NCBI GenBank assembly: GCA_022376515.1 | Contig: WTXI01000013.1 | Span: 186,001 to 250,000 of the forward strand | Source of the DNA: Lactifluus volemus | Lineage: Eukaryota > Basidiomycota > Agaricomycetes > Russulales > Russulaceae | Direction of reading: 5' to 3' | DNA length: 64,000 bases | Part shown: positions 24,646 to 64,000 of the stretch, one piece after another | Layout of the letters: the number at the start of each line of letters is the position of its first letter | Position numbering within the stretch: the first letter of the stretch is position 1 | Program-made: the position numbers and the translations under genes | Notes under the pieces: model-generated | Told to the model about the DNA's origin: nothing | Database searches by the model: none | The model's input: only the letters and a program-made list of their open reading frames with translations

Positions 24646-27271
24646 ATGTCGCAAATCAACGATCCCGAACAGAACCTGCGGCCAGGTCCAGCGGTGGTTC
24701 ACAACCTGAGTACGTTGGTTTTATGCCGTTGTTGTCCCAGGCAGTGGTAGTCTGACGGGTATTCAAGGTCAGGCAAATGCGAACATCACACCTGGCGATG
24801 CTTCACTGGAGAATTCTGGGGATTTTGACGATAATGCCACTCCCCTCTGGTCCCTCTATAAGGAAAAATCCCAAATCCATGATGAGGCTAAGATCCAGAT
24901 TTTAACCAAGAGTATGACAGATGTCCTGTTGTTTGTGCGTTCATATATTCCCACTTTGATAATATGTCTGACTATGATCCACAAGGCCGGCTTGTTTGCT
25001 GCTGCCCTATCCCCTTTTATCGTCGATCGCTTTCAGGCCATACAAGTAACCCCTGTACAGCAGATGGTATTCTATGAGCAACAATCTGTCGACTTGCTCA
25101 AACAAATATCCGCACAAATATCCTCTCTTTCTCTACAGGCGCCTGTTCCATCCCCTTCCCCATTGCCACCCCTTACGGCCAATCCGTCACGGTCTGACAT
25201 ACTAGTCAATGCACTCTTGTTTATAAGTCTCGTTGTAAGCCTTTCTGCTGCGCTCCTCGCAACCCTTGTCCAGCGATGGGCCCGGGACCACATGCAAATT
25301 TTCCACCGCCATAAACACCCTTTAAAGGTTTCACGGATCCGACAATATCTACATGAAGGCGTCGAGCGTTGGCACATGGCAATGATTGCAGAAGCAGTAC
25401 CTACGCTCATCCACGTCTCTCTCTTCCTATTCTTGGTTGCCCTTGCCGTCTTCTTATCAAATGCGAATTGGACCGTTGCGATATTTACCACTTTCTTCAT
25501 CACACTCTTTTTCGCGTTGTACCTCATCGCCACGATTCTACCAGTCGCGAAACCACAGTTTCCTGTTCGCAGCCCAGTTTCTGTCCTGCTCTGGTTTGTG
25601 GTCCAAACAATTTCTCCAAGGCTGCACAAGGATAGTGGAGATGGGGAATTGAAACCAGTGAGCCGAAACATGGTGGATGGGCTGATGGAACTGGCCTTGG
25701 AAGACAAACCTGTTCGGACATATGGCGATCGGGGGGCAATTGCATGGCTGGTGCGAGACCTCACTAGGGATGCCGAGGTGGAATCCTTTGCCTCGATTAT
25801 TCTCGGTTCTTTCAATTTGGAATGGGTTGTGCGCGTATTGGGGAAAACCGTACCTACCAACTGCAACTCAACGACAGGACTGACGATCGATGACGATGAC
25901 ACACCCCACCCGCTCTGCAAGCGCATTGGTCGCTTGCTCCAAACATGCAGTAACCCTTACCTCTTCAAGAACGAGGATAAACGGCTTACGCGCTCGCGTA
26001 CCTGTGTCCAGGCCGTAGCACTGCTTGTATTCCACCTGAAAGCCGATTTGAGCTGGTTTGGAGACATAGAAACTATCGGGAAACTTCTCAAGGCCCAAGG
26101 CTACAGAGGCCATCCCCGGTCGTCAGTGACAACGGGTTCGAACCAGTCACTCGTCGCGAATTGGACAGGCCTCTCGGTAGTGTTCATCCAAAAAAAGCTC
26201 GTCATGAAACGGTCAATGGTGGCAACGCAAACAAATTTTCAAGGCTTTAAGCCTAAATCCCCAAATGAAGTGATCTCACGCGCTCAGGCGATCGACAACA
26301 CCCTCAAGGTGATGTGGGATCGTGTAGAAGCCCTAGATAAAGATCCAAGACCCCACGGGGATAGGACAGAAACAGAGGAAGACAAACACCATCGAGAGTG
26401 GATCGATCGTCAAGTTGAACAGACGGCTCGTATCTTCGTGCCCAGTTCCGGGTTCCGTACTGCGGTTGACAGAGCCTCCTACAAGTTACCCGAAGAACTT
26501 CCCTGGAATGCTCTCAAAGCAATAACTGGATCAGTTGATGCTTTTGACTTTCTCCTCAATCCCTTCGAGGCCCAATTGAAGTACCTACAAAGTCGATTTG
26601 ATCGGTCTGACTTGTCCAGCTGGGGACCAGGTGCGGAACCAGGTGCGGAACAGGGCACAAGGCCCGACGTGGAACAGAGCAGTCCGATCACACGTCTGTA
26701 TCGACCCGCGGAACGACAACTGTGGCGACTGCTCGACTTACATGACGGTGGCGCCGTTGGGTTTACGCTAGAACTTTACCTCGTCTCCCTTAGGGAAATA
26801 CTCTCAACTTTTACTTCCCCATCAGACGACTCGCACGATACCTTCTTTAGCGCCTTCGAAGCCATCACATCCGACCACGACCTGTCCGAATGCACCATCT
26901 GGACGCAGAAACTCATTCTCGAACTGATCCTCGATATAGCAGCCAATCGTGGTGTTTTTTCTGATTTCAGTTATCCCAAGTTTATCGAGGAGGAACTCGT
27001 GCGCATACTACGCAGTGTAGTTTCGGGGGTGCATGATGTGTCCTATATCGGAGTTGCAGTGGAAGATCTCGAAAAAGTCAAGTCGCGACACCGTCATGCA
27101 GGTTTTCGGGAGAGCGTATTAGATGTTCTCAGGCGTCATTTGCTGGGGCCATTAGCGCCCCCGATGGTGCCTGGTCCTAGTAATACTACCCCTGCCCCCC
27201 GTCCTGCCAACCCCCCCACTTCTGATAACTCCATTTTTCTCGCTCAATTCTCCCTCAACCACGACATTTAG
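24646..27271 (+). CDS. DUF6535 membrane protein 1, with a MITE-derived C-terminus
   Basis: Three exons: 24646-24709, 24768-24934 and 24986-27271, giving 838 residues. The introns (58 and 51 nt) each hold TCTGAC as branch site. The intron 1 acceptor is placed at ATTCAAG because the four paralogs then keep a similar first-intron size. The N-terminal part has NATPLWSLYKEK, then AGLFAAALSPFIVDR (helix 1). Later come a hydrophobic helix near VNALLFISLVVSLSAALLA, then TLIHVSLFLFLVALAVFL and a fourth helix, before a long soluble region. This is the pattern I know from the Agaricomycete DUF6535 family (function unknown). The last codons, from about 27186, lie in a MITE copy that supplies the stop and replaces the RPARMNR-type tail of the paralogs. 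The frame is otherwise open. Confidence 0.7.
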
Positions 27272-27500
27272 CCCACAGTACCTAGTACCATATTCCATGC
27301 ATTTTTTTGATAGAAATTCTGGTGTGTAGTGAAATAAAAAATAGCATGTTTGTCGCGCCTGACAGTGTCGGAGTTTACAATGTTACGAAAATGGCAAGCG
27401 GAAATCACACTTTAGCGCTCATTGTGGCCAGAGAGCACGCCAAACGGAGTCTGAAATTTGGCGTGTGACCTAGCGTAACATGTCAGAAGGGGAGGACCTC
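27186..27500. mobile_element. Diverged MITE copy in the 3' end of DUF6535-1
   Basis: Read on the plus strand, this matches the reverse complement of the 16785-17109 element. The matches run through TTCTGATAACTCCATTTTTC, CAGTACCTAGTACCATATTCC, GAAATAAAAAATAG, CGCCTGAC with GTGTCGGAGTTTA, and GTGTGACC. The left end follows TA (27184-27185) with CTACCCC. The right end is degraded (TGTCAGAAGGGGAGGACC) and the terminal GC-rich part and right TA are not visible. Just beyond, the normal DUF6535 3' flank resumes (GAGTTACAGTGCAA near 27513). It is older than the first copy, judging by its mismatches. Confidence 0.75.
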
Positions 27501-27789
27501 AAATCATTGTCGAGTTACAGTGCAATACCCAAGTTGTTTACCTTACTTGTCTTAACCTTTTGCAGTGACTCTATTACGTTATACCAGCACTAGTATGGGC
27601 CTGTGCTCCGTGACTTCCAAGCATGTTGCCGCAGACAATGATTGCTGACCATTCAGGGTACGTCCGTGCCAGTGTCGCTGACCTTGCATCGACATCACCC
27701 ATTCCCATCCTGTTTAAGCTCGTTCCCTTTACCTCGCGCACCACGACGTCACCTCGACCACGACGCTATTCCTCCGTAGCCATGGTCCC

Positions 27790-30500
27790 ACTGAGGGCCT
27801 CGTGCCACACACGTGCTCCCTTCAAGTTATCTCCTTCGTATCTGCTATGTGCCTCGTGTCTCACGGCCTCCCATTTAATTAGATTGCCTCGCCTTCGTGT
27901 TTTACTTCTCAGTACGGCAATAGCTCTGTCTTTGTTTTGCCTTCATTAGTTTCAGCCCTGGACTCCGGCGTGCAATGCTTCGCGCCGTGTCTAGGCTTTT
28001 CGATTGAAAAATATCTTTATATTCTTCCTTGATTCTCGGCTTTGCACTCTAGTTTCGGTATTGGTCCTGTGTTCTGTTGTAGTCTTGCATCTCTTCCCAT
28101 TCTTAACGCGTTCCATACCACCCTGAGAACGATCCAGCCTGAGCCTTTCTCTGCACTAGTGAGGGTGCGGGTACCCGCAATGAAAATTTTATATTATGGT
28201 AGGAATCAGAAAGCGCCGGATCACGGACAGCTAACGCACAGGGAAGACGATAGCGGCAAACTTAAGAAATTACCGAACCAGAACCAGCGTGATAGCACGA
28301 GAACGGAGATAAGGCAGGCAACTAAGTTGACGAGATACTAAGAACTGTGGAACAGGAACAACAGCACGCAGGCCAACGCTGGCAAATTAAGAAAAAGTTC
28401 CAAGGACAGCAGGGAAGTAAGAGAAGGGACGATCCGAGCCCTGAGGTCAGGATTGGAGAGAAAGGGGGTGAACATAGAAGCTGTTAGTCAAAGTACTCCT
28501 GGTGAAGGTAGCACAAGGGTGAAGTACGCTGACTCGCGTCATGATACTTGGCAGGACAAAGGTGTGTCATTTTAACATTGACACTGTATGACTGGGGCAG
28601 TGCACCAGCGGCGGAAAGCCCCAAAGTGTAGTGGATAACAGACGCATGCATTGAACCATGGAAGGTGCAGGGAAAGACCTGCCAGGGGTGCGCACACAAG
28701 GGCAAGAGATGTTCCAATTAGAGAGTTGAAAAAGGCGTCGTCGGCCCTCTGTGGCCGGTGCGATCAAATGACCAACCTTGTATGATAAAAAGGTCATCCT
28801 GTTGGAACAAAGGGAGTGGCCACCATACTGGCACCAGGAAGGAAGGCGTGAGGACAGCATAAGAATCAGCTTCGGACGGAATAAGTCAAATAATTCCAGA
28901 GATAGAAAAATGAGGGAGCGCAGGAGTCCCGACTGTGGCAAAGATGGAGATGGGGGGGAGCCTGCCAGAGAAGGCTACTTGCCAGTGAATGATGATGTAG
29001 TAGGCCGCATGTCTGCAGGCCAGGGGCATACTCGGCGCTGAAAAATGCCCCGTGTCTATACTTTACTGTTCAAGTCGTATAGAGCGAGCGCACGGCAACG
29101 ACGAGTACTATGCGGCAGCTGTCGATATCTGCCAGTGGTAATACAAGTGGTAAGCTTGGTTTGATGATCGGTTCGCGTCATCTGGCGCTCGGCCCGAGTG
29201 CCGACGGCGCAGCTGTCAATGTCAATGACACGCAGGGCAGTGTACAACTTTATGAAATCTCTGGCATTTCGCTCTCTCTTTCATCCGACGTCCCTCCGAA
29301 ATTATTCCGGAAACGTGTCTCGTAAGTTAGTACGGGCCCAAGTAGAATTGTCTGCCGACAATTGGCTTGCTTCCGATCTGTGTACTACATCCAAAATCTG
29401 TGATCATCTAGTCCGTCACAATCACCGGATGGATCTCAACTTCTATCATCATTGGCAAGCGCATGTAAATGGAGACATAGGAGATACAGAAAGGATATAT
29501 GATGGAAGGCGTGGGAGGAGGGGAGGGTCAGCTGGAGTATCACGCGTTTGCCAGGGCAGCGGGCTGTACTAGTACAGAACCACCATTTTCTCAGGTTTAC
29601 GTGAAGAACTTACGGACACATCTGAACGTACGGTGAAGATGAGTGCGAGAGAGACGTGGGATCGTCATGAGATGAGGGCTGATCGTCCCGTGTTTACGTA
29701 CATGCCAGTGGTTGTTCGCCAATTGAAAACTTACTCTTACAAGTCGACTGGTACTCCAAACCTGCTGCGCACTTTCCCACCCGTCTTCGTGCGTGTGCAT
29801 ATATAGTGCCCAAGGGTTGCTCACTTGGCGCTTAGCTGATCGATAATGCATTTTCGTTATAGGCGCCTCGCCTTGCGTGACGACGCCCATCTGATGTCGT
29901 TACTTCTGCAGAAGTTTAAGTTTCCTTCCAGTTGCCTCTTGAGGTAGTTCTACTTCTGCCCCCCAAGACATGCGGGGGTGTTGGCCAACGTTTAATGGGT
30001 TCTCGACCCTGATTGGGGGCTCCGTACTCTCAGGCTTGCCATATATTTCGAACTCTTGCGCCGTGATGATCCGTTGCGCGTCATGCATCAGTGACTTGTA
30101 GGCATTCCATCAAAAGACTGATCACCCCTCATGGACAAGGTGCGCCGGAGCACATGAGACAAGACTCAGATTTACGTGACAGCCGGGGACATCCAATCGA
30201 GAGGATGATTACAGCTCGGAAGGAGCACAAGTGTGGTGAATTATATATCTCAGTAATCGAAATTCATGTCACTAAACCTCCGTGGAGATAAAGCGCTCGT
30301 TCCACGTCCATTGAGTGGTCAACCTACGGAGTTACACGATCTCTGTCGCCCGCAGCATCAAAGACAAGGTGGTCAAGTAGTGGACTACGTACTCGAAATA
30401 GATACAGGATCACGGATCGCATTCCGCCGCAATCAAGCCGAACGAGGCCTCTCCTTGGTCCGTGGGTGAGTCGAAAGCTGATATGAGGATGGGCATACGA
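27790..30500. repeat. Duplicated spacer block, copy 1 (partner 40070-42885)
   Basis: Long same-orientation similarity to 40070-42885. Clear anchors are CCTCGTGCCACA near 27797, GCGGGTACCCGCAATGAA near 28167, GTGGAACAGGAACAACAGCA near 28346, and TGCCCAAGGGTTGCTCACTT near 29807. There are many small indels. No coherent protein is seen on either strand. It is probably duplicated repetitive DNA, perhaps an old mobile element, but no terminal structure was found. Confidence 0.7.
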
Positions 30501-30517
30501 TAAGAGGTCGTCCTAGC

Positions 30518-30606
30518 GAGATATCTCAGTTGAATCTGTGGTGCAAGTGGTCGAGGAATTGTGCGAGTCATTGTAGATGGTCGAACGAGGGGCCCGGCGG
30601 TCGTTG
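30518..30606 (-). pseudogene. 3' terminal fragment of a DUF6535 gene, antisense
   Basis: The plus strand reads CGAGATATCTCAGTTGAATC and then GGTCGAACGAGGGGCCCGGC, matching the ends of the minus-strand DUF6535 genes (48535 and 53221 onward). It covers only about the last 28 codons plus stop. It is cut at about 30607, exactly where the block shared with 22700 begins, so it marks a recombination breakpoint. Confidence 0.7.
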
Positions 30607-31790
30607 TCGCGGTACTATTTGTAGCAGCACAGTTAACGCGGCGCCATTAACCGACCTTTTTCTGTTTTTGCCCTGGGTGAGCACAACCGTGTAAACGCAT
30701 GTGCGATGGCACGTGATCTGACACGACGGGCGGCAAAAAGCGATCACATAACAAGGTCGTGCTATTGAATGCGCGTTGCAAACACCAGCGGACACGCTGG
30801 AGAGGAAATGGCAGATAGGAGAGGAAGAGGAGGAGGGGAGATGAGATGTGGCAATCCCCTGTGGGGGGGGAGGGGGGTGATTACCCCTGCCTGCTCAGTT
30901 TTCGCGTGTTCGAATGGGATATAGTGCCAGTTCGTTTTTTATTGATCGGGATAGCGAGAACGTAGAGCGCTCCGGGCTCAGAAACGAAGAATCGCATATT
31001 ATATATACCGCTGGAGGGCCGGGCGCTGCCCCGAGGAAGTCGTGGTTAGGGATGAAGTCGCGTTGTCTGTGACTCTGTGCTTATCTCAACGTCGGGTAAC
31101 TGCACAATGTCCGCTACGCTTCCCACGCCTGTCATCCCGCCCCCGCTATCCCTAATCCCTACTCTACCGCGGATAACGTATCGCACGCAGTACTATTTGA
31201 CCAGGTAAATGGTGGCGATCACAACATGCCTCCTTGGCTTGCAGGATTCCGAATGGCGAGAACGTGTTAGGAAGCGCCACTCTACAATGAAAAGCCTGAC
31301 TGTGGAGAGAAATTGTAAGTTCAAGATCTCGAGGCCCCCCTGCAACTCGCAACTCGAGGGGAAAGGAACACAGTGATGAGGGTAGGACGGTGCAGACTCA
31401 AAGTGTCAACGCGTAATTATTATGTTTATTGGGCGTTTGGACAAGGCGCGAGAGCGACCGGTGAGAATTTTTGCTCTAAGTGTTGATCTTCATGATAGCC
31501 GCCACACCGGCAAGGGACACAAATGGAGAATAGAGTGTTTGAAGAAAGTGCCACGCTGTGTTGGGTGTTAGCTGTGTTCATTATCGACGCCATCACCTGG
31601 GAGCACTCTTCCGGTATCTGGTGACCAATATTTGGGTTAGGTGCCCTCGCCGCGCCAGGGGGTAATGTGGAGATAGAACGCGTCGACAGTCCCGATCTCC
31701 ACATTACTCATTTCTATTCTACGACGTATCGTCTGGAACAAGAGCAGTGAGTCGTAAATGCCAGGAGTTGTAGATTTGGGACTCTGCGAA
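30607..31790. repeat. Duplicated upstream block, copy 2 (partner 22700-23750)
   Basis: Mirrors 22700-23750 in the same orientation, from TTGTAGCAGCACAGTTAACG to GTTGTAGATTTGGGACTCTG. It has an extra segment of about 170 bases (31008-31178) and many small changes. It lies upstream of DUF6535-2. The following 31790-32330 stretch contains short frames but no gene I can support. Confidence 0.75.
31008..31178. mobile_element. Copy-specific ~170-bp insertion
   Basis: Compared with 23075-23095, copy 2 is interrupted by a GC-richer segment starting CCGCTGGAGGG and ending CTCTACCGCGG. Near its two ends are TTAGGGAT and ATCCCTAA, an inverted pair, and the extremes CCGC and GCGG are also inverted. This suggests a small non-autonomous element. 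No clear target duplication could be defined, so an alternative is deletion in copy 1. Confidence 0.45.
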
Positions 31791-32367
31791 ACTTGTCGAA
31801 TCAGGATCAATAATTGAGTTGACTTGAACTTTGATTCTTCCAATATTTAAGGTCGTCACTTTTCTTTCACATTAGTGCTAACACGTACTAATGACTGAAC
31901 GTACGCCCATGGGTGAGTTCGAGAGTAAATTATTGGGGAAAAGAATGACTACTATGTTCTCTGAGTCTGACCTCTACTGTAATTACGTTGTGTGGCTGAG
32001 GGTTAAGGTAAAGCTCGAACTGCTGTGTGACTCTACACGGGCCGAGCCCGAGGCGGAACTTGAATGTGGCATGCAAGGTGGTTGCAAGGCGGACTCAGTT
32101 TCAAGGTGCCCGGACTTCATTCAGCCCTCCAGCTCTCAGATTTTTGGTCTATGTCCGGATGTCATGGCTGATATCGACTATTAGTTGGATGGGTCATGAT
32201 GCCGGCATGACACTATGCGCCGGACGTTACACATTACACGTTTAGATAACTTAAGTTATGTCATTACGGAAGTTCGGGAATTTCCATCCATCACTCGCAC
32301 AAATCACGGACAAATAAAGCAGTGCCCTTTTTCCCTCCACACACCACGCCTGTTGACCTTTCATTTC

Positions 32368-35025
32368 ATGTCGCAAATCAACGATCCCGAACAGAATCCG
32401 CAGCCAAGTCCAGCGGTGGTTCACAACCTGAGTACGTTGTTTTTCTGCCGTTGTTGTCCCAGGTGGTGGTAGTCTGACGGGTATTAAAGGTCAGGCGAAC
32501 CCGAACATCATACCTGGCGATGCTTCACTGGAGAATTCTGGGGATTTTGACGATAATGCCACTCCCCTCTGGTCCCTCTACAAGGAAAAATCCCAAATCC
32601 ACGATGAAGCTAAGATTCAGATTTTAACCAAGAGTATGACAGATGTCCTGTTGTTTGTGCGTTCATATACTCCCACTTCGATAATATATCTGACTATGAT
32701 CCACAAGGCTGGCTTGTTTGCTGCTGCCCTATCCCCATTTATCGTCGATCGCTCTCAGGCCATACAAGTAACCCCTGTACAACAGATGGTATTCTATGAG
32801 CAACAATCTGTCGACTTGCTCAAACAAATATCCGCACAAATCTCCTCTCTTTCTCTACAGGCGTCTGTTCCATCCCCTCCCCCGTTGCCTCCCCTTACGG
32901 CCAATCCGTCACGGTCTGACATACTAGTAAATGCACTTTTGTTCATAAGCCTCGTTCTAAGCCTTTCTGCTGCACTCCTCGCAACCCTTGTCCAGCGATG
33001 GGCCCGGGACCACATGCAAATTTTCCACCGCTATAAGCACCCTTTAAAAGTTTCACGGATTCGACAATATCTACATGAAGGCGTCGAGCGTTGGCACATG
33101 GCAATGATAGCGGAAGCAGTACCTACGCTCATCCACGTCTCTCTCTTCCTATTCTTGGTTGGCCTTGCTGTCTTCCTATCAAATGCGAATTGGGCTGTTG
33201 CCAAGCCCACCATTTTCTTCATCACACTCTTCCTCGTATGGTACCTCATCGCTACAATTCTACCAGTCGCGAAACCACAATTTCCGCTTCGCAGCCCAGT
33301 TTCTGTCCTTCTCTGGTTTGTGGTCCAATCGATTTCCCCAAGGCTGCACAAGGATCATGAAGATGGAGGACTGAAACCAGTGAGCCCAAACATGGTAGAT
33401 GGGCTGATGGAACTGGCGTTGGAACACAAACCTGTTCGGACATATCGCGATCGGCGGGCAATTGCATGGCTGGCGCGAGACCTCACTGGGGATGCCGAGA
33501 TGGAATCCTTTGCTTCGATTATCCTCGGTTCTTTCAACTTGGAATGGGTTGTGCGCGTATGGGGAAAAAGAGCAAACGGCGTATCGACCAACGACAACTT
33601 AACGACAGAACTAACAATCGAGAACTATGACATCTACCCGCTCTGCACGCGCATTGGTCACTTGTTCCAAACATGCAGCAACCCTTACCTTTTCGAGAAC
33701 GAGGACAAACGGCTTACGCGCTCTCGTACCTCTATCCATACCGTAGCATTGCTCGTATTCCGCATGAAAGCCGATCTGAACTGGTTTGGAGACATAGAAA
33801 CGATCGGGAAACTACTCAACGCCCAAGGTTACAGAGACCATCCCCGGCTGTCATGGGGAACGGGTTCAAACCAGTCATTCGCCGCGAATTGGACAGGCCT
33901 CTCGATAATGATCATCCAAAAACACTGGTCATGGAACGGTTCAAGGCGGCAGCGAAAGCAGTTTTGCTAAGCTTTGACCCTATCTCCCAAAATGAAGCGA
34001 CCACGCGCGCTCGGATGATCGACAACACCCTCAAGGTGGTGTGGGATCGTGTAGAAGCCCTAGATAAAGATCCAAGACGCCACAGGGATATGCCAGAAAC
34101 CGACGAGGACATACGCCATCGAGAGTGGATCAAACATGAACTTGAGAAGATGGGATACACCTCCAGGCTCCTCTCCGATCTCCGAACCGCAGTTGACCTA
34201 GCCTCCAACCAGTTGTCTAAACGCCTTCCTTGGAAATCTCTTAAAGAAACGACACAATCAACTGATGCTTGTGATTTCCTCCTCAATACTTTCGAAGCCC
34301 AATTGAAGTATCTGTATGGTCGAATTGCTCCGTCTAGCCTCAGCGTGGGCGGGGGCGTGAAACAGGCCGAAGAACAGGGTGCGAACCAGGGCACAAAACA
34401 CGCTGTGGTACAGAACCGTCACGGTGCTGTCACACCTATGTGTCGACCCATGGAACGGCAACTGTGGCGTCTCCTCGATTTACATGAAGGCGACGCTGTT
34501 GGCTTCACGCTAGAGCTTTATCTCCTCTCTCTTAAAGAAATCCTCTCCACTTTTGCTTCCCCATCAGACGACTCGCATGACAACTTCTTTATCGCCTTCG
34601 AAGCCATCACATCCAACCGCGCCCTGTCCGAATGCACCATCTGGACGCAGCAACTCATTTTCGAACTAATCCTCGATATAGCAGCCAATCGTGGTGTTTT
34701 TTCTGATTTCAGTTATCCCAAGTTTATCGAGGAGGAACTCGTGCGCATACTACGCAGTGTAGTCGCGGGGGTGCACGACGTGTCCGATATCGGAGTTGCA
34801 GTGGAAGATCTTGAAAAAGTCAAGTCGCGACGCCGTCATGCAGGTTTCCGGGAGAACGTATTAAACGTTCTCAGGCATCCCTTGCCGAGGCCATCAGCGC
34901 CCCCGATGGCGCCCGGTACGAGTAATAGTACCGCGACAACGACTGCCGGGCCCCTCGTCATTCGACCAGTTAGAATGAATCGCCCGGTTCTACGACCACA
35001 GATTCAACTGAGAATATCTCGCTAG
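32368..35025 (+). pseudogene. DUF6535 membrane protein 2, one-base frameshift
   Basis: Exons 32368-32431, 32490-32656 and 32708-35025, with the same intron positions and sizes as DUF6535-1. The N-terminal membrane part is intact (AGLFAAALSPFIVDRSQ, then ALLATLVQRWARDHM, and SRIRQYLHEGVERWHMA). After LSIMIIQKHW the frame shifts and stops at 33970. The paralogs read IIQRTLVMERLK there, and an alternative frame from the same spot resumes TLVMERFKAAAKAVLLSF and stays open to 35025. The lesion is a missing A in the A5 run at about 33918-33922. The C-terminus keeps the family tail (VRMNRPVLRPQIQLRISR). It is a recent pseudogene, a truncated 480-residue membrane product, or a homopolymer sequencing error. 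Confidence 0.7.
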
Positions 35026-35284: not shown

Positions 35285-38200
35285 GGTATTTCTCAGTCAT
35301 TGTATCCTGTCCAAATCAATATAGGCCGCTGCCGTTAGAAAAGACTAATGGTCAGCCACTTGAACTAAGAGAACCTAGAAGAGAGAGTAATCATAGTATA
35401 CTGCGAAATAGCTCTAAGTCTATGCCAGGGACGGCATGCCACTGGTATGCCGCGTTCGTGCTCTAGCGGTCGAGGTGAACAGCGCCGCCAAGGAAATAAA
35501 AACGAAAATGACGAAGCCACAGGTAGGATACCTATGACACGTCTCGCGGACCTTTGAAATGATCAAATAGTAAATCGATCGAACGACCATCACCAAACAG
35601 TCGAATGGGTTCTCCCCGCGGGCAGGGGCGGAACTTCCAACGGTATCTGATTGTTATTATCCCGCGCGTACACATCGGCGCCGTTCATGAGTAGTATTTG
35701 CACCGTCTTCATTTTCTTGTTATTCTTTGCGAGGTGTAGCGGTGTCTTGCCATCGTTGCCCTTCGCGTTCACGTCCGCTCCTCCATTGAGTAAGCACTGC
35801 ACAACATCGACAGCGCCCACAAACGACGCCACATGCAAAGGGGTCCAGCCCATGTCGTTGGACGCATTGATATCCCCGCCGTTCTCGAGTAAACACTGCA
35901 CGACTTCGAGAGCCCCTCCTGCGATGCAACATGTAACGGAATCCAGTCCTTGACATTGCGCGCGGTTAAATCTCCGCCCATGTCGAGTAAGAACTTCACG
36001 ACGTTGGCAGGTCCGCAGCGCGACGCCACATGTAACGGCGTCGAGTTCTTGTTGTCTTGGGCATTCACTCTCGCGCCATGATCAAAGAGCAACCTGACAA
36101 GCTCGAGGCTTCCGCTCTCCGATGCTAGGTGTAGTGGCGTTGAACCTTTGTTATCAACTGCATCGATTTTCGCTCCACGAGAAAACAGGAATTCGGCAAC
36201 TTGCAGGTTTTCATTGGCCAACGCGAGGTGCAAAGGAGTCGAGCTGTTCCTATCCCGGCAATCCACTTTTGCGCCATTGTCGACCAACAGCTTGACAATC
36301 TCGACATTCCCTTTGACCGATGCGAGGTGAATCGGTAACGAGCCCTGGTCGTCCGGGGCATCTACTTTCGCGCCTTCTTTAAGTAGCAGTTGGACACTGT
36401 CAACGTTTCCGCTGTCCAATGCTGCACGCAGCAAAGACGAGAGTTCTTCTCCGGGCATGTTCAAAACCGCGCTGTGGCCAACTAGTAGTCGTACGATCTC
36501 GGTGTGTCCTTTGGTCAAGGTAATGTACAATGGGGTGAAGCTGTCGTGGTCCGGGGCATTGACATTCACGCGGTGGTCAACTAATAGGCGAGCAATCTCG
36601 AGGTGTCCCATGTAACATGCTGCGTGGAGTGGAGTTGCGAAACTACCGCCTCTGGCATTGACATCTTCTTTGTGTGTCCTGATGAGATGGTCTGCCAGGT
36701 CACGGAAACCGCAGAGCGCGGCATAGTACAACGCGCCGGCTTCCGGTAGCACTGCATCCGAGTCTCTCGGTGACACGTCCTGTCAACATTATGCATACGA
36801 ATCCAATTTCTGAATTGCGGTGCGGTCGGGTCGAAGAGTGATTTCATCCCGTCCTGTACGTGGGATGACGCGTTCTTAAACTGGGCATGGTCGACCCAAT
36901 GTCGAGCAGCGTATTTGACTAGCGGTGAATCCGTGACATGGGACCAGTAAACCTGGCGGTCAAATCCGAGTAAGACACCAAGGCAAGCTTGTGCAAGGAC
37001 AGTATGGGCATCTTCGAGAGAGACATGATAATGTGAGAGGCATCCATTTGATGACGTGGCGAGGCGACCCGAGGTTAGGAAATCCTTTAGGGAAATGTGG
37101 GAGAGTTGGGCGACCCGGCGACGGTCTCGGTTAATAATGGCAATCAAGTCCGAGGACAATGACAACACCGCCTGCTCTGGGTCCTTCGACCGCTTATCCA
37201 CATCGAGCTTCGGGATCCCATTTCTTGGCAGGTCAAGGGCAAGGATTTCTGCGAGGTCCTCGACATAAAGTGGCCGGATCGCTACCGTGAGGCATTGCAG
37301 GAGACGATGAACATGGTCTCTGTGGGCCTTGTCGATTTGCAATAGCGCACGCTCATACGTCTCACCCAGCGATTCAGGGAAAGGAAATTCAACCCGGAAT
37401 CTTGCCGGAGGACAGTCGCGCAGCGCCTTCAGCTGGCATGAAGCAAATAGAAACCTGAATGATGGACAGCATAAGCAATATGGTTGGGCATACGGCAAGG
37501 ACCTTACATTCCGTCGGCTCTTCGTGAGAGCGTATCAAAAACTAATTCCTTGTCCTCCCTTTCCCATCTTTGCATCATTGGGTCTGAGTCGACGAAACGC
37601 TTGATAAAGTCGATCACGTCTTGTTTTTGTCGAAATTCGTTCTCTAAAGATATTCGGGAAGGGGACAAGGGCTCAAGGGCTTTTCGGATGTCGATCTCGG
37701 GTCGGCTAGAGACACACAGACGGAAGTTCTTGAGACGAAACTTGGTAAGTTCCTCCACAAGCTGGAGGATATCTTCACGGGGTGACGGTGATCCAGGAGA
37801 ACTAGGACTTTCATCGAGTCCGTCCAGGATGATGTAGATCTGGGATTGAGCTGAGAGCATTTTTTTCAAGTATGCTGTCAAAACGCGTCCATCGGGCATC
37901 TGTTCTGGGTCGCTGTAGTAGGTAGAATAAAGCTCGTCCAGGACGTCACAACAGTGATTGGACTGATTGGATAGTTGGATAAGGAGAGAAGAAAGTACAT
38001 AGAAGCGAGTTTGTTTATCCGTGTCCCTACAATCGAAGAAACAGTAGGCCATGAGAGCTCGTTCATCCTTTGCTTGGATGTCTTTGATGATCGTGGAACT
38101 AAATAACGAAAATAAGATCTGATAGAATGAGTGCAAGGATAACGAACCAGAGGCCAGTCTTTCCAGAGCCAGCTATCGAAATGGGGAGGCATCAGAAATT

Positions 38201-39440
38201 AAACTATAAGGGTAGAAGGGTACAAACGCATTCCACTGATCCACAACAGGGAACCGCTGGCCTTCCATCGTTTGTAGGAATCGTTTTCGAGAAACCACCT
38301 AGAAGCCTTGCGCACGGTGTACTTTTGCAAGTGATCGGGTGGAGAGAGCCACGACTTGACGAGTCCTAGCAGAGTGCGTCCTGTGTGAACGTTTGACCCA
38401 TCCATCACGTGCAACGTGGGAGAAACGAGGGAGTACGAACGCTTCTCGTCCATGTCATCACCACTTGGCTGTTGTAGAGCCACTGGTCTAGGCAGCTTCT
38501 CCTCGTCTTGTATCAACTTGTCAAGTTTAATAACTGCGGTCTGTATGCTACGCTCTTTGTCATCGGAAGACTTGGACGGACGTCTTTCGGAGGAGCTCAA
38601 CGGGCGTGCTTCTAGAAGGGGGGTAATAATCTTCATATAGTTTGCTGAATAGGCTAGATGAGTGAAATACGATATGTCACCCAGGATAAACTCACTCAAA
38701 TGCCGTTGCTTGATGTGCTTTGTTAACATGGCAAGCGTCGTGAGTACTTCGGCCATGAACACTACCATTCTGTCCTTCACTTTCTCATCGAGAGAGACCT
38801 CGGTGAAACTCTTGAGCCGTTGAAAAAAGGTTTGCATGCGCAGGAAGAAGTCTGAGAGGGCCTCTGTGGGGACAACAGCCTGAAACATTTAGGCGTCATA
38901 ACTATAGCGCGCGGAAATGGAGGAAGATACGAACTTCGAGGAAGATACCGATAGCAGTAAGAAGAGCATTCGAGGGTGTGAATAACTGTAAACGTGGGTT
39001 AGAAAGGACGGTGATGGAATATGAGCCTGAATGATGTTCACAATGCCAACGTGTCTCCCTAGAGTAAACGAAAATGCGTGGAGGACATCCACGGTTGTGG
39101 CAAGCCAGAGTCCTGATCCTTCCTTGCCACCAAAAAAATTTCGGGCATAAACTCGAAGCACAGAGAGAATCATGTCGGGAGTGCTGCAATTTTGCAACTT
39201 GGGGAGTAGAGAATGCTCCGAAATGTCAATCTTTGTTTGCTTCCGGTATGAACTTAAGGCATCGAGAAATATGTTCCTAGGAGATGCTGGGGATAAGGAT
39301 ACATTGTAGGAATATGGGAAGGTGCAGTGAGAGTGGGAGAGCGCAGTGAGAGTGAGAAGAGTGTTAAGCATGGACAGCAGTGCAGTCGTTGACAAAGGGA
39401 TAAATATGACCTTTTTTGGGCATATGTCATGTGCCCTAAA
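35285..39440. repeat. Inverted duplication, left arm (partner 56770-60950)
   Basis: The reverse complement of this segment matches 56770-60950 nearly base for base. It includes the STAND gene with promoter-proximal DNA and 300 bases of 3' flank. The loop between the arms is about 17 kb and carries three DUF6535 genes. Arm ends are estimated by eye. Confidence 0.85.
35590..39371 (-). pseudogene. Goodbye-NACHT-ankyrin STAND protein A, two frameshifts in last exon
   Basis: Six exons: 39371-39042, 38985-38935, 38879-38228, 38172-38148, 38098-37508 and 37454-35590. The N-terminus (FLDALSSYRKQTKIDISEHS, then ATTVDVLHAFSFTLGRHVG, then RMQTFFQRLKSFTEVSLDEK) matches the fungal STAND Goodbye domain. 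NACHT Walker A is GMPGSGKTGL (about residue 345, split over exons 3 and 4) and Walker B is IYIILDGLDES (about 440). SRPEIDIRKAL and a helical region follow, then eleven ankyrin repeats. Such proteins are signalling NTPases acting as fungal NLR-like receptors. Compared with gene B, one G is missing at about 36779 (before DVSPRDSDA) and one at about 35913-35916 (GALEVVQC), so the ankyrin part is shifted twice. The start is an upstream ATG, since a 13-base deletion puts the ATG used by gene B out of frame. About 1171 codons if uninterrupted. Confidence 0.8.
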
Positions 39441-42885: not shown

Positions 42886-43622
42886 CGAGAAATTTGGGGA
42901 TGTCTACCAGTGATATTGCGGGGCGGGTTTTCAGGCGAGATCGGATGTGTCGAAGAGACATTGTTAGGAACGGACACCGTGCTAGGTGTCACTGACAACT
43001 TCAAGTTGAACGGTATCTGAACCTTTTGCAATTGGCTCATATGTCTGTAGACGAGTGTCCAATCAAGCGACCTTCAGTTGGAGTAATTTGATGAGCAGTC
43101 CGAGTCCCGGACGCAGTAACCGTGACACAGAAAATAAAACGACCGCACCACATACTCACAGAGGCAAAGTCCCAACTGTCTGCCAGTGTGTTCAAAACAA
43201 GCCCAGTAATTCACCCCTGCTGTGATCACACAATTTCAAGCGTTCCATATAACTTGAACGATGGGTATCTGAGAGAGCTTCAGTTGAAGATGAATGCACG
43301 TAAGGAACGGCCAGCACTGCCAAGCCACGACAATAGAAGTACGGCTTGGCTCATAGAACATTACATCCCTCCCTCACCCTAGGCCTTGGGGAAACATCTG
43401 GGCGTCTTGGATAAGAGTAAGTACACCACAGGTCGAGCATATCTACGTTCAATTTACAGGTAGCAGCTTGGAACTCTTCTTAGTCACCTCGTAAGATACT
43501 GTATATGCGAATAAAACGTGGGTATATCGTGTGTGGGAAAAGAAGCGGAAGCAATTTGGCACCGGCGGACTGGTAATCAAAATAGACAGTGATCAATTGA
43601 GGGTTGTACTGCGAGCTGATGG

Positions 43623-48534: not shown

Positions 48535-51256
48535 CTAGCGAGATATTCTCAGTTGAATCTGTGGTGATCGGGGAATCATTGAAGCTGGTCGAACGACGAG
48601 GGGCCCGGAGGAGGTACTATTACTAGTACCAGGCGCCACCATCGGGGGCGCTAATGGCCTCGGCAAGTGATGCCTGAGAACATTTAATACATTCTCCCGG
48701 AAACCTGCATAACGGTATCGCGACTTGACTTTTTCGAGATCTTCCACTGCAAGTCCGATATCGGACACATCATGCACCCCCGCAACTACATGGCGTAGTA
48801 TGCGCACGAGTTCCTCCTGGATAAACTTGGGATAACTGAAATCAGAAAAAACACCACGATTGGCTGCTATATCGAGGATCAGTTCGAGAATGAGTTGCTG
48901 CGTCCAGATGGTGCATTCGGTCAAGGCGCGGTTGGATGTGATGGCTTCGAAGGCGCCAAAGAAGGTGTCATGCGAGTCGTCTGATGACGAAGTAGAAGTC
49001 GAGAGAATTTCCCTAAGGGAGACGAGATAAAGCTCTAGCGTGAACCCAACGGCGCTACCTTCACGTAACTCGAGGAGTCGCCACAGTTGTCGTTCCGTGG
49101 GTCGGTACAGACGTGCGACCGGACGGCTCTGTTCCACGGCTTGCCTTGTACCCTGTTCCGCACCTTGTTCCGCACCTGGTCCCCAGCTGGACAAGTCAGA
49201 CCGATCAAATCGACTTCGCAGGTACTTCAATTGGGCCTCGATGGGGTTGAGGAGAAAATCACAAGCATCAACTGATCGAGTTATTGCTTTGAGAGCATTC
49301 CAGGGAAGTCCTTCGGGTAACTTGTAGGAGGCGGTGTCAACCTCAGTATGGAGCTTGGAAATGGGCATTTGGATGCGAGCCATCTGTTCAACTTCATGAT
49401 CGATCCACTCTCGATGGCGCTTGTCCTCCTCTGTTTCTGGCCTATCCACGTGGCGCCTTAAATCTTTATCTAGGAATTCTACACGATCCCACACCACCTT
49501 GAGGGTGTCGTCGATCCTCCGAGCGCGTGAGATCGCTTCATTTGGGGAGTAAGGCTCAAAGCTTAGCAAAACCCCTTGCGCTGCCGCCTTTAACCGTTCC
49601 ATGACCAGCGTTCTTTGGATGATCACTATCGAGAGGCCTGTCCAATTCGCGGCGAATGACTGGTTCGAACCCGTTGCCAATGACAGCCGGGGATGGTCTC
49701 CGTAACCTTGGGCCTTGAGCAGTTCTCCGATCGTTTCTATGTCTCCAAACCAGTTCAAATCGGCTTTCATGCGAAATACAAGCAACGCTACGGTCTGGAC
49801 ACAGGTACGCGAGCGCGTAAGCCGTTTATCCTCTTTCTCGAAGAGGTAAGGGTTGCTGCATGTTTGGAACAAGCGACCAATGCGCGTGCAGAGCTCCTGA
49901 AAACTCTTCACTTGCAGATGAGCAGGACGAGAAATTGTTGGCGCGCGCATGGGAGGTAGAGGGGTGCCAGTGGGGGAGTTGTCCCCAATTGGGATGCCCA
50001 TGGATCCAAGGAGATTCAAAAGAGTCCCGAGGCGCGATGGGGGGTAGAGCGTGTCATAGTTATCGACCGTCAGCCCTGGTGAGTATTCATCCTGGTTCCC
50101 GTCGCTTTCGTTTGTTCTTCTTCCCCATACGCGTACACCCCATTCTGGGTTGAAAGAACCAGGAATGCTTAGGGCAAAAGATTCCATCTCGACGTCCTCT
50201 GTGAGGTCTCCAACCAGCCATGCAATTGCCCGCCGATCGCGATATCTCCGGAGGGGTTTGGTTTCCAGGGCTAGTTCCATCTGTCCGTCTCCCATGTTTT
50301 GGCTCACAGGCTTCATTTTTCCGTCGTGGTCCCTGTACAACCTGCAAGGGAACCACTGGGCCAAAAACCAAAGCATGACAGAGAATGGGCTACGAAGCGG
50401 AAATTGCGGCTTCGAGACCGGTACAATTGTGGTGGCAGCATAGAATGCGCAATAAAGCACGATGAAAAAAACAGTAGGTGCACCAACAGTCACATCCGTA
50501 TGCATTAGGAAGTCGGCAAGGCCAAACATGAACAGGAAGAGAGCAATATGGATGAGCGCAGGAACTGCTTCCGCTATTGCTGCCATGTGCCAATGCTCGA
50601 CACCTTCATGTAGATATTGTCGGATCCGTGAAAGCCTCAAAGGATTTTTGTACCGGAGGAAGATTTGCATGTGCCTCCGGGCCCATCGCTGGACAAGAGT
50701 CGCGAGGAGTGCAGCGGAAAGACTCAAGATGAGACTTATGAACCACAACACATTCACTCGTTTGTCTGACGGTGACGGATTGGCAGTAAGGCTACTGAGG
50801 GGAGGCAGTGGGGATGGAGATGGAACGGAGGCCTGTGGAAAGGCAGAAGAGAGCTGTGCTGAGATTTGTTTGAGCAGCTCAACTGATTGTTGCTCATGGA
50901 AAACCATCTGCTGAGCGGGAGTGACTTGTATGGTCTGGACACGATCGACGATAAATGGGGTGAGAACAGCAGCGAACAAGCCAGCCTAGGAGATCATAAT
51001 CAGACACGTAGTCACTAGCAGGTTGTGGGAAGCATGTGAACACACAAACAAAAGGACACCAGTCATACCCTCGGTTAAATTCTCAATCTTCGCCGCATCA
51101 TAGTCTTTAGCTTTTTCCGAATAGAGGGACCATAAGGGATTGGCTTCATGGTTGAAATCTGTTGTGGCGAAATGAGTGGTATCAGGAGCACTGACAGAGA
51201 ACCAACGTACCGCTTGTTTGTGAAGGATCCTCTGGCATGGAACTTTGCGGCTGCAT
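48535..51256 (-). CDS. DUF6535 membrane protein 4
   Basis: Three exons: 51256-51211, 51158-51046 and 50985-48535, giving 869 residues with no interruption. Exon 1 encodes MQPQSSMPEDPSQTS, and exon 2 starts FNHEANPLWSLYSEKAKDYD. Exon 3 opens AGLFAAVLTPFIVDRVQTIQ (helix 1). Three further hydrophobic helices follow around NVLWFISLILSLSAALLATL, PALIHIALFLFMFGLADFL and FFIVLYCAFYAATTIVPV. A soluble C-terminal region of about 550 residues carries GAEQGAEQGTRQAVEQ, then YRPTERQLWRLLELREG and DIAANRGVFSDFSYPKFIQEE. The basic segment WARRHMQIFLRYKNPLRLSRI after helix 2 suggests a cytoplasmic loop. Function is unknown. It is one of two paralogs whose whole family-type frame is open here, so it may be a working member. 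Confidence 0.75.
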
Positions 51257-51419
51257 GGCACAAATGGTGGAATACGAAAGGGCGTGTGGGCGAGTGTGTG
51301 GTTGGGGAACTTATGAGAACGGCGGGGCGCAATGAAAAGAATGGTTCAGTGCAACGCGGTGTTCGCGCCACGGAAATACCCGAAATTCCGTAATTATGAG
51401 TGAACAAGGTTTGTTCCTG

Positions 51420-53220: not shown

Positions 53221-55972
53221 CTAGCGAGATCCGCTCAGTTGAATCTGTGGTGGTCGAGGAATCGGGCGATTCATTCTAGCTGGTCGAACGACGGGTCCGG
53301 CGGTTGTTGTCACGGTACCATTACTAGTACTGGGCGCCATCGGGGGCGCTGGCCTCGGCAAGTGATGCCTGAGAACATTTAATACATTCTCCCGGAAACC
53401 TGCATGACGGTGTCGCGGCTTGACATTTTCGAGATATTCCACTGCAACTCCGATATCGGACACGTCATGCACCCCCGCAACTACATGGCGTAGTATGCGC
53501 ACGAGTTCCTCTTCGATAAACTTGGGATAACTGAAATCAGAAAAGACACCACGATTGGCTGCTATATCGAGGATCAGTTCGAGAATGAGTTGCTGCGTCC
53601 AGATGGTGCATTCGGACAGGTCGCGGTTGGATGTGATGGCTTCGAAGGCGCTAAAGAAGGTGTCATGCGAGTCGTCTGATAAAGCAGAAGTCGAAAGTAT
53701 TTCCCTAAGGGAGACGAGATAGAGCTCTAGCGTAAACCCAATGGCGCCACCTTCAACTAAGTCGAGCAGTCGCCACAGTTGTCGTTCCATGGGTCGATAC
53801 AGACGTGTGACCGGACGGCGCTGTTCCACGGCTTGCCTTGTGCCCTGTTCCGCACCTTGTTCCGCACCTGGTCCTCGGCTGGACAAGTCAGACCGATCAA
53901 ATCGACTTCGCAGGTACTTCAATTGGGCCGCGATGGGGTTGAGGAGAAAATCACATGTATCAACTGATAGGGTTATTGCTTTGAGAGCATTCCAGGGAAG
54001 TTCTTCGGGTAACTTGTAGGAGGCGGTGTCAACCTCAGTATGGAGCTTGGAAATGGGCGTTTGAATGCGAGCCATCTGTTCAACTTCATGAACGATCCAT
54101 TCTCGATGGTGTCTGTCTTCCTCTGTTTCTGGCCTATCGAAGCGTTTTGAATCTTTATCTAGGACTTCTACACGATCCCACACCACCTTGAGGGTGTCGT
54201 CGATCCTCCGAGCGCGCGAGATCGCTTTATTTTGGGAGCTAGGCTCAAAGCTCAGCAAAACCCCCTGCGCTGCCAACTTTAACCGTTCCATGACCAGCGT
54301 TCTTTGGATGATCACTATCGAGAGGCCTGTCCAATTCGCGGCGAATGACTGGTTCGAACCTGTTGCCAATGAAAGCCGGGGATGGTCTCCCGGGCCGTAA
54401 CCTTGGACCTTGAGTAGTTTCCCGATCATTTCTATGTCTCCAAACCAGGTCAAATCGGCTTTCATGCGGAATATAAGCAACGCTACGGCCTGGACACAGG
54501 TACGCGAGCGCGTAATCCGTTTTTCCTCTTTCTCGAAGAGGTAAGGGTTGCTGCATGTTTGGAACAAGCGACCAATGCGCGTGCAGAGCTCCTGAAAACT
54601 CTTCACTTGGAAAGGAGCAGGGCGAGAAAATGTTGACGCGCGCATGGGAGTTAAAGAAGTGCCAGTAAGGGGGTTGTCCTCAATTTGGGTGTCCATGCAT
54701 CCAAGGAGATTCCAAGGAGTTCCGAGGCGCGATGGGGGGTAGAGTGTGTCATAGTTATCGATCGTCAGCCCTGGTGGTGAGTATTCATTCGAGTTGCCGT
54801 CGCTTTCGTTTGTTCTGCTTCCCCATACGCGTACACCCCACTCTGGATTGAAAGAACCAGGAATACTTAGGGCAAAGGATTCCATCTCGACGTCCTCTGT
54901 GAGGCCTCCAACCAGCCATGCAATTGCCCGCCGATCGCGATATCTCCGGAGGGGTTTGGTTTCCAGAGCTAGTTCCATCTGTCCGTCTGCCATGTTTTGG
55001 CTCACAGGCTTCAGGTCTCCATCGACACGATCCCTGTACAACCTGAAACGGAACCCCTGGGCCAAAAACCAAAGCATGACAGAGAATGGGCTCCGAAGCG
55101 GAAATTGTGGTTTCAAGAGTGGTAAAATTGTGGTGGTGGCGTAGAAAATGAAATAGAGCACGATGATAAACATAGTAGGTGCGCCAACGGTCTTGTCCGC
55201 GTGCATTAGGAAGTCGGCAAGGCCGCACATGAACAGGAAGAGAGCAATGTGGATGAGCGCAGGAACTGCTTCCGCTATTGCTGCCATGTGCCAATGTTCG
55301 ACACCTTCATGTAGATATTGTCGGATCCGTGAAAGTTTCAAAGGATGTTTGTACCGGAGGAAGATTTGCATGTGGCTCCGTGCCCAACGTTGAACAAGGG
55401 TCGCGAGGAGTGCAGCGGAAAGACTCAAGACGAGACTTATGAACCACAACACATTCACTCGTTTGTCTGACGGTGACGGGTTGGCGGTAAGGGGAGGCAA
55501 AGGGGATGGAGATGGGATGGAGGCCTGTGGAAAGGCAGAAGAGAGCTGTGCTGAGATTTGTTTGAGCAGCTCAACTGATTGTTGCTCATAGAACACCATC
55601 TGCTGAGGGGGAGTGACTTGTATGGTCTGGACACGATCGACGATAAAAGGGGTGAGAGCAGCAGCGAACAAGCCAGCCTAGGAGATCATAATCAGACACA
55701 TAGTCACTGGCAGGGTGGGAAGCATGTTGAACGTACAAACAAAAGGACACCAGTCATACCCTCGGTTAAAGTCTCGATCTTTGCGTCATCGTGGACTTTG
55801 GCTTTTTCTGCATAGAGGGACCATAGGCGATTGGCATTATCGTTGAAATCCCCATGAGGCTCTTGTAACAAAAAAAATGAGACTTTCAGGAATAATAAAG
55901 GCAGCGAATTAACGTACCGGATGAGCCTGAGACTGCCGAGTTCGGCTGTTGAGGTTCGTTGATTCGCGGCAT
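53221..55972 (-). CDS. DUF6535 membrane protein 5
   Basis: Three exons: 55972-55918, 55861-55737 and 55677-53221, giving 878 residues, fully open. Exon 1 reads MPRINEPQQPNSAVSGSS, and exon 2 has GDFNDNANRLWSLYAEKAK. Exon 3 has four hydrophobic helices as in paralog 4 (AGLFAAALTPFIVDR; WFISLVLSLSAALLATL; LIHIALFLFMCGLADFL; FIIVLYFIFYATTTILPLL) and the same long soluble part, ending ARMNRPIPRPPQIQLSGSR. The alternating GAEQG linker and the DIAANRGVFSDFSYPKFIEEE block are preserved. It is close to paralog 4, consistent with tandem duplication of gene plus spacer. It is divergently oriented to STAND gene B, 924 bases away, so the two may share control elements. The molecular role of the family is not known to me. 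Confidence 0.75.
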
Positions 55973-56896
55973 GGAGCGAAGAATCACAAATGAAAAGTCA
56001 AAGGTCCAAATGAAAGGGCGTGGGGGTGGGGAGGAGAAAAGCCCCAAGTCGGCAGTACCACTGTTTAAGTAACACAAGATGGCGCCAAGAGTTTATGGTG
56101 CCAAGAGCGAGTTAGCTCATCATCGCCACCCATATTCGTTGCCGTAATAGCTATGCAATAGCTATGCAAGCGGTTGGGACTGATAATTCTGCTACCAAGT
56201 GCCTCTTCGTTTCCTGGTTCCCCCACACCAAACAACGGACTCTGGAGACTAAGTGCTTGGAAACTTGGCAAAAAAGTGTCTCGGAAAAAAAATTATTTGC
56301 TTGTTGAAGGACATTTGCTTTTGTCCACAGTTACACTTGTTGAAGTGCGTTGACAGAGTCATTCAAGTTGTTCCTGGGACAATATTCGATCCCCGTTTGA
56401 CACATGGTACAATCCCAATTTTCATCAGACATATCGAAACTCCGCTGGCAATGACCTCAAGACGGTACTGGGACTGTCTTGGATGAGTTAACTATTCGAC
56501 ACAAAGTTTCTGGTTTTCTTTAATCATTCCAACGGCTCGCTCATGTTTATTCCGAAAATTTTAAACCTCGCCTCGGCATATTCCGTGCTGGGGATTTCCA
56601 AAGGGATTCCCCATAGCCTCTCCGCTTTATTATCCGATAGATGACATAATCACTTTCTCACTGCCCCAACCCCAACAGATTCAAGGTCTTTGAAGAGGGA
56701 AATTTGCCACGAATGGAGGCCTGGAGACAAATCAGATTGCTTAACTTTTATACGTAACTGTGGACGTAGGGCTGATGTATGCCCATAAAAGGATAGATTT
56801 ATCTCTTGTCAAAGACGCACTGCCCCCCCATGCTCAGCTCTCTTCTCTCTCTCACTGCGCTCTCCCACTCTCACTGCACCTTCCCATATTCCTACA
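55973..56896. promoter_or_regulatory. Shared divergent promoter region of DUF6535-5 and STAND gene B
   Basis: The 924 bases separate two divergently transcribed genes and contain no recognisable coding sequence. The right 130 bases, a pyrimidine-rich leader with repeated CTCTCTCAC-type words before the ATG, are also present upstream of STAND gene A. ATAAAAGG at about 56784-56791 is a possible TATA element for gene B. No equivalent DUF6535 neighbour exists at gene A. Confidence 0.5.
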
Positions 56897-63789: not shown

Positions 63790-64000
63790 TCGCAACATTG
63801 AGCCATTTCACTTACTGGCGAGGCAGTGTTCTTTCACCAACGACAAGTAGCAAAAATCCGTCTGCGTGTTTTCAATTATTTATAACCCTCGCTTTGCAGG
63901 TATTCGCACTCTCAAATGCAAGCCTTGCTGCAATTGGTACCCACCTCGAAGTCCGTATCTTCCTCTATTCCCGCGCACCGTTGTTATGAACCCCTAAATG
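63790..64000 (+). pseudogene. 5' fragment of a third STAND gene copy, cut by the window edge
   Basis: 63899-63949 (VFALSNASLAAIGTHLE, preceded by TTTGCAG and followed by GTCCGTATCTTCCTC) matches exon 2 of STAND genes A and B (LFTPSNALLTAIGIFLE) and its donor. The following intron sequence up to CCCTAAATG also matches. Upstream, CATTTCACTTACTGGCGAGG at about 63804 resembles the end of exon 1 but is altered, and the rest of exon 1 is not recognisable. The copy therefore looks damaged at its 5' end. Orientation is the same as gene B. What lies beyond 64000 is unknown. Confidence 0.6.

What the first reader, a model, noticed from the sequence alone, without database searches (positions are those of the whole stretch)
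24646..64000. Amplified island combining DUF6535 membrane proteins with Goodbye-NACHT-ankyrin receptors
Seen: five DUF6535 paralogs and three STAND copies interleaved in 40 kb, with duplicated spacers and little else. Known: STAND/NLR-type NTPases act in fungal non-self recognition, and several known fungal systems pair a receptor with a membrane-acting partner encoded next to it. Inference: DUF6535 proteins (four N-terminal helices, long soluble tail) could be the membrane partner of these receptors. Gene turnover, copy-number growth and inactivation of individual copies fit a fast-evolving recognition locus. I know of no description of this pairing, but could not search.
Basis: partly seen in the sequence, partly recalled or inferred. 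Interest (0 to 1): 0.75.

Follow-up and report, generated by a model that had tools for sequence, protein, structure and literature searches.

The report
Back-to-back receptor and membrane-protein genes
In a milk-cap mushroom, one small lineage of immune-type receptor genes sits back to back with one lineage of an uncharacterised membrane-protein family, and the two have been copied and kept together as a unit, although the two families otherwise stay apart in this genome.

Summary
The island is real. The window lies in Lactifluus volemus and holds five DUF6535 genes, two near-full-length Goodbye-NACHT-ankyrin STAND genes and a STAND fragment at its right edge.

A general DUF6535-STAND pairing fails in this genome: of 149 DUF6535 hits outside the window's clade, 0 lie within 5 kb of 348 STAND loci (capped lists; about 8 expected under uniform placement).

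A clade-specific pairing exists. Seven of eight STANDs of the window type stand head to head with a DUF6535 gene: window gene 5/STAND2, two pairs on C120, three on C501, one on C431. They form two types. Between types, synonymous divergence is alike for both genes (DUF6535 0.59-0.65, STAND 0.64-0.83), dN/dS 0.25-0.47, so the pair apparently split as a unit under constraint. A 14-base word in the shared intergenic region occurs eight times in 62.4 Mb, seven of them in these seven regions. Haplotypes differ in copies carried.

Joint function is inference: there is essentially one origin, no shared motif was found, and only one of the window's five DUF6535 genes is paired.

The parts
24646..27271 (+). 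DUF6535 gene 1, unpaired; 838-aa public gene model P0001 (98% identity)
32368..35025 (+). DUF6535 gene 2, tandem copy of gene 1 (86.6% over 2.6 kb), split over two frames near 33.92 kb
43614..46097 (-). DUF6535 gene 3, unpaired, split over two frames near 44.17 kb
48535..51198 (-). DUF6535 gene 4, unpaired
53221..55972 (-). DUF6535 gene 5, divergent partner of STAND2; start codon at 55972 inferred from similarity to gene 1 exon 1
55973..56896 (.). shared intergenic region of gene 5 and STAND2
56603..56616 (+). 14-base word found once in each of the seven pair intergenic regions and once elsewhere in the genome
56897..60643 (+). STAND2, Goodbye-NACHT-WHD-ankyrin; exons 56897-57172, 57229-57279, 57335-57773, 57836-58000, 58052-58076, 58127-58723, 58777-60643 (1139 aa, my model)
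35302..39438 (-). STAND1, inverted copy of STAND2 (93.6%), introns kept, three frame-changing deletions, no divergent DUF6535 partner
63879..64000 (+). STAND fragment (Goodbye part), continuing past the window edge
22705..23754 (.). duplicated spacer, matches 30619-31837
30619..31837 (.). duplicated spacer, matches 22705-23754
27795..30365 (.). duplicated spacer, matches 40080-42796
40080..42796 (.). duplicated spacer, matches 27795-30365

Best explanation
Within two very large and otherwise separate gene families of Lactifluus volemus, one DUF6535 lineage and one Goodbye-NACHT-ankyrin STAND lineage form a divergently transcribed pair that has been duplicated and inherited as a unit (shown from sequence). 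The most likely working is a two-gene receptor module: the ankyrin repeats sense a ligand, the NACHT oligomerises, and the Goodbye domain, with or through the neighbouring DUF6535 protein (membrane helices plus a helical tail), brings the response to a membrane, as executor or as anchor. Sensing, oligomerisation, membrane insertion and contact with DUF6535 are all inferred.
For: Seven of eight STANDs of this clade are head to head with a DUF6535 gene, against 0 of 149 DUF6535 hits outside the clade near a listed STAND. dS between the two pair types is alike for both partners (DUF6535 0.59-0.65; STAND2 NACHT 0.66-0.83; WHD 0.64-0.69) with dN/dS 0.25-0.47. All six introns keep GT-AG in the seven other copies. 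A 14-base word is shared by all seven intergenic regions and occurs once elsewhere. Whole pairs vary between haplotypes. DUF6535: predicted membrane helices and an all-helical model. Fungal NLR-effector pairs such as nwd2/het-S are also adjacent and in part divergent (passages of PMC3321046).
Against: Nine of 16 DUF6535 loci of the clade have no listed STAND within 5 kb, four of five in the window; STAND1 has no partner. One ancestral pair could explain all seven. No shared segment between the partners (best E 0.92 for gene 5/STAND2, 0.39 for C501 pieces). Trees of the two partners differ in branching among the C501 copies. The C120 counterpart of STAND2 is frameshifted, and intactness of the type B STANDs was not established. 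Constraint on each gene does not show joint function. No expression or interaction data.
Confidence: 0.45

Rival explanations
1. Frozen neighbourhood: a chance head-to-head junction arose once and was copied along by tandem and segmental duplication; each gene works by itself.
For: One origin suffices; strong local duplication; DUF6535 and STAND are unpaired elsewhere; STAND1 and nine of 16 clade DUF6535 loci lack a near partner; introns of the two types still align at 64-86%, so the short shared intergenic block may be mere descent.
Against: The pairing was kept in seven of eight STANDs although the arrays were rearranged, including partners with different branching, and intergenic sequence otherwise lost alignability between types.
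Confidence: 0.37
2. Guard form: the DUF6535 protein is not the executor but a membrane protein (or decoy) that the STAND monitors or that restrains it.
For: Same facts as the main model; the Goodbye domain may itself be an executor, since published models relate it to the HeLo/MLKL four-helix bundle (passages of PMC9815663). Among type B copies STAND dN/dS is 0.37-1.15 and DUF6535 0.18-0.62 (near-identical C501a/C431 left out), which would fit a faster-changing receptor.
Against: No data on direction of signalling; same weaknesses as the main model.
Confidence: 0.15
3. General rule: DUF6535 proteins are partners of STAND receptors throughout the family, as first proposed.
For: The window and three other contigs; on C161 a more distant DUF6535 and a STAND are divergent but about 10 kb apart.
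Against: 0 of 149 within 5 kb outside the clade (capped lists); 0 of 8 sampled upstream regions; on C597 the two genes run in the same direction.
Confidence: 0.03

Closest known systems
nwd2/het-S and related fungal NLR-effector gene pairs (HELLP/PNT1, SesA/SesB with STANDs)
   Same: A STAND/NLR gene next to a gene for a membrane-acting (or here membrane-helix) protein; nwd2 and het-s are divergently transcribed in Podospora (passages).
   Different: There the partners share a short amyloid motif; none was found here. The partner here is DUF6535 and not HeLo, and the receptor carries a Goodbye domain. In het-S pairs the orientation varies between species.
Goodbye-NACHT-ankyrin NLRs of Agaricomycetes
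   Same: STAND2 has this domain order and its best database matches in Lactarius and Russula carry Goodbye, NACHT and, in many rows, ankyrin families.
   Different: Best listed identity over near-full query cover is about 41-42%; I saw no description of a linked partner gene in the passages read.
Head-to-head NLR-NLR pairs of plants and Sordariales
   Same: Divergent pair with short shared intergenic region (passages of PMC12258605).
   Different: Here only one of the two genes is an NLR.

Membership tests
Fungal STAND/NLR (Goodbye-NACHT-ANK) | NACHT with P-loop followed by superstructure-forming repeats | tested here: met
   NPHP3_N 4e-35, NACHT 2.9e-7, Ank 1.1e-77 on the spliced model; the model reads GMPGSGKT at the P-loop
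Fungal STAND/NLR (Goodbye-NACHT-ANK) | N-terminal Goodbye domain | tested here: inconclusive
   PF17109 E 2.4e-4, 22.0 bits, below the 24.8 cut-off; relatives carry it
DUF6535 (PF20153) | Match above the family's cut-off | tested here: met
   Five window genes, 122-140 bits, cut-off 23.9
nwd2/het-S type amyloid-linked pair | NLR gene adjacent to the effector gene | tested here: met
   Seven head-to-head pairs
nwd2/het-S type amyloid-linked pair | Motif shared by the NLR N-terminus and the effector C-terminus | tested here: not met
   BLASTP gene 5/STAND2 best E 0.92; C-terminus against N-terminus best E 2.4; a very short diverged motif could escape BLASTP
nwd2/het-S type amyloid-linked pair | HeLo-type effector domain on the partner | tested here: not met
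   Pfam finds only DUF6535 on the partner, gene 5
nwd2/het-S type pair, by function | Receptor activation triggers membrane damage through the partner | not testable with these tools
   Needs expression in cells
Head-to-head NLR-NLR pair | Both genes encode NLRs | tested here: not met
   Partner is DUF6535 without NACHT

The most novel reading that the evidence does not exclude
DUF6535 proteins of this lineage are the membrane-acting half of a two-component fungal NLR system: a Goodbye-NACHT-ankyrin receptor and a membrane-helix/helical-tail partner expressed from one shared promoter region, working without a shared amyloid motif. That would be a new partner class for fungal NLRs, found first in Russulaceae.
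Probability: 0.27. Interest if true: 0.8.

Novelty: new variant of a known kind. Interest (0 to 1): 0.5.

Why it matters
I saw no named partner for Goodbye-type NLRs in the passages read, and in the library searched DUF6535 appears only as a table row of one paper. A naturally linked pair with paralogous and probably allelic copies in one sequenced assembly gives a concrete place to test both. The negative result also matters: abundance of the two families does not predict their adjacency, so pairing in this clade needs its own explanation.

Tried and rejected
General enrichment: not supported in this genome. The counts use capped lists: 150 of 776 first-look DUF6535 candidates and 348 merged STAND loci pooled, where NPHP3_N alone had 1154 first-look candidates with 150 scored. 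Absence is therefore a statement about the listed part.

Shared repeat-rich neighbourhood as the explanation: not supported, since outside the clade the listed members lie apart.

STAND1 as a retrocopy: rejected, all six introns are present.

Same-contig test in other fungi, by comparing by eye the contig lengths in the tables (120 best rows of each): one coincidence, 5386, between a DUF6535 protein (P0011, jgi) and an ankyrin protein (P0331, ena). With so many lengths in that range about one chance match is expected by my rough estimate; left unresolved.

Other divergent partners upstream of eight hand-chosen DUF6535 genes (four of them close relatives): Crinkler N-terminal domains in one region, an ankyrin protein without NACHT in another, a zinc knuckle in a third, no consistent partner. 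Eight shorter loci with 1.5-kb flanks also held no NACHT (L001-L008).

The palindromic core GGGGATTCCCC alone: 35+42 sites genome-wide, 4+5 for the reversed control; not specific to the pairs. The 14-base word may be a STAND promoter element only.

C161: a more distant DUF6535 and a STAND are divergent but about 10 kb apart; six ORFs tested in between show no Pfam family. Left open.

dS and dN/dS: simple Nei-Gojobori counts on single-exon parts. Rows left out before the count: NACHT of the first C120 pair (frameshifted) and the C431 DUF6535 gene.

Full report
What is there. The window is C35:186001-250000 of a 62.4-Mb, 628-contig assembly. A window protein matches BGW80DRAFT_1458133 of Lactifluus volemus at 98% on a contig of 858748 bases, the length of C35. 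Pfam finds five DUF6535 genes and two NACHT-ankyrin STAND genes. I derived a spliced model for STAND2, 56897-60643, seven exons, 1139 aa, six GT-AG introns. It matches Goodbye (just below cut-off), NPHP3_N/NACHT, a weak winged helix and about ten ankyrin repeats. The same six introns have GT-AG in STAND1 and the first C120 copy and in five more distant copies. STAND1 is an inverted duplicate at 93.6% with three frame-changing deletions; the C120 counterpart of STAND2 has two single-base deletions. Two of these single-base losses lie in runs of five G and seven A, so assembly error is possible.

How the island grew. DUF6535 genes 1 and 2 with their spacers look like a tandem duplication (about 22.7-31 and 30.6-43 kb) with STAND1 lying in the second unit (inferred). 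Genes 3, 4 and 5 group separately from them in the tree, on a branch with support 85/94.

The pair. Genome searches with the window's DUF6535 and STAND proteins and annotation of the hit contigs show one layout repeatedly: STAND on one strand, DUF6535 on the other, 5' ends facing. The seven pairs are window gene 5/STAND2; C120 at 24.2-31.5 and 35.2-41.9 kb; C501 at 168.8-175.7, 183.5-190.2 and 195.4-202.2 kb; C431 at 8.9-15.6 kb. The window pair's start codons are 925 bases apart. STAND1 is the one of the eight clade STANDs without such a partner. C120 matches the window at 96.6% over 10.6 kb, and C431 matches C501 at about 95%, so several pairs are probably alleles. There are two types: A (window, first C120 pair) and B (the other five).

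Age and constraint. Between paired copies of A and B, the DUF6535 membrane part has dS 0.59-0.65 and dN/dS 0.25-0.34. STAND has dS 0.66-0.83 and dN/dS 0.35-0.47 for NACHT (STAND2 against five B copies), and dS 0.64-0.69 and dN/dS 0.28-0.38 for WHD (STAND2 and first C120 copy against five B copies). STAND1 against B gives dS 0.57-0.75 and dN/dS 0.35-0.53. The similar dS suggests that both genes split together. Among B paralogues, STAND dN/dS is 0.37-1.15 (leaving out the near-identical C501a/C431, NACHT 0.16) and DUF6535 0.18-0.62. Both trees share the A/B division, but branching among the C501 copies differs, so partners were exchanged or converted within the array. Whether the B STANDs are intact was not established: the alignment to STAND2 has many indels and a start codon aligned only in C501a.

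The shared intergenic region. A and B intergenic regions align only over 22-32 bases. A 14-base word of that block occurs eight times in the genome: once in each of the seven intergenic regions, in the same orientation to the STAND gene, and once on C1; the reversed control word occurs 0 times. Introns of the two types still align at 64-86%, so the block may be descent and not selection. It does suggest that the intergenic regions are homologous and that the divergent layout is older than the A/B split.

Haplotypes. C593 matches window 5.2-23.7 kb at 93-97% plus the gene 1 region. C120 matches 41.5-62.3 kb at 87-97%. That both belong to one other haplotype is inference. C120 has about 1.1 kb where the window has 6.3 kb holding STAND1. 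C120 also carries a B-type pair not seen among the C35 hits, nor in the next 10 kb of C35.

No general rule. Of the 150 scored from 776 DUF6535 candidates, 149 lie outside the clade: 0 within 5 kb and 1 within 10 kb of 348 listed STAND loci, where uniform placement predicts about 8 and 17. In the clade it is 7 of 16 within 5 kb (Fisher p 2e-8, which ignores common descent and overstates the case). The clade of 16 has support 90/99. Eight hand-chosen 4-kb upstream regions of other DUF6535 genes hold no NACHT. On C597 a STAND and a DUF6535 gene lie about 5 kb apart in the same direction.

The DUF6535 protein. Hydropathy gives one weak and three clear membrane helices in P0001; of the four proteins scanned, one shows only three. 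AlphaFold with 68 sequences gives an almost all-helical model, mean pLDDT 73.3, pTM 0.65. Only weak resemblance to helical-repeat proteins was found. No shared segment with the STAND was found, whether with gene 1, gene 5 or the C501 pieces.

Relatives elsewhere. The best DUF6535 matches outside this assembly are metagenome proteins at 64-73%, and the nearest named other species in the list is Russula dissimulans at 40% (120 of 283 listed). The best named STAND matches are Lactarius and Russula proteins at about 41% (120 of 406 listed). No gene order is available for these.

Literature. In the held library one paper has DUF6535, PF20153 or IPR045338, in a table of down-regulated genes (passage seen). 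Searches for Russulaceae with NACHT and for L. volemus gene families gave nothing relevant (listings), nor did a search for fungal NLR gene pairs in basidiomycetes (listing). Passages of PMC3321046, PMC9815663, PMC12258605 and PMC12881547 were read, not the whole papers. PMC3321046 describes nwd2 and het-s as divergently transcribed and Goodbye-HeLo proteins next to STANDs; PMC9815663 relates Goodbye to the HeLo/MLKL bundle. I saw no mention of DUF6535 there.

Judgement. Pairing, co-duplication, constraint and turnover are supported by sequence. Joint function is inference from essentially one ancestral pair; a frozen neighbourhood is the main rival.

Noticed in passing
window 434-2315 and 7063-8854: A 1.9-kb direct repeat (88%) with 15-base tandem repeats inside both copies.
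   Followed up: no
window 8921-10696: Rtt106-like gene with exactly one other match in the assembly, 97% identical on C593; used to find the probable allelic contig.
   Followed up: yes
whole assembly: Very large expansion of both families: 776 DUF6535 and 1154 NPHP3_N first-look candidates, partly allelic copies; many identical scores on different contigs suggest an assembly holding two haplotypes.
   Followed up: partly
L034 (C368:173000-177500) 3269-4206: Two frames with Crinkler N-terminal domains upstream of a DUF6535 gene.
   Followed up: no
C120:34.1 kb, C501:191.3 kb, C431:16.6-16.9 kb, window 63.9 kb: Fragments of the STAND N-terminal part recur about 1 kb from the 3' end of type B DUF6535 genes and at the window edge, perhaps remains of earlier pairs.
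   Followed up: partly
P0004 against window 32368-35025: The public model matching gene 2 lacks a stretch present in gene 1 near the frame break; an annotated intron may hide a broken copy.
   Followed up: no
C161 10.4-12.8 and 23-27.3 kb; C597 128-135 kb: Two other places with a DUF6535 and a STAND within about 10 kb, one divergent and one in the same direction.
   Followed up: partly
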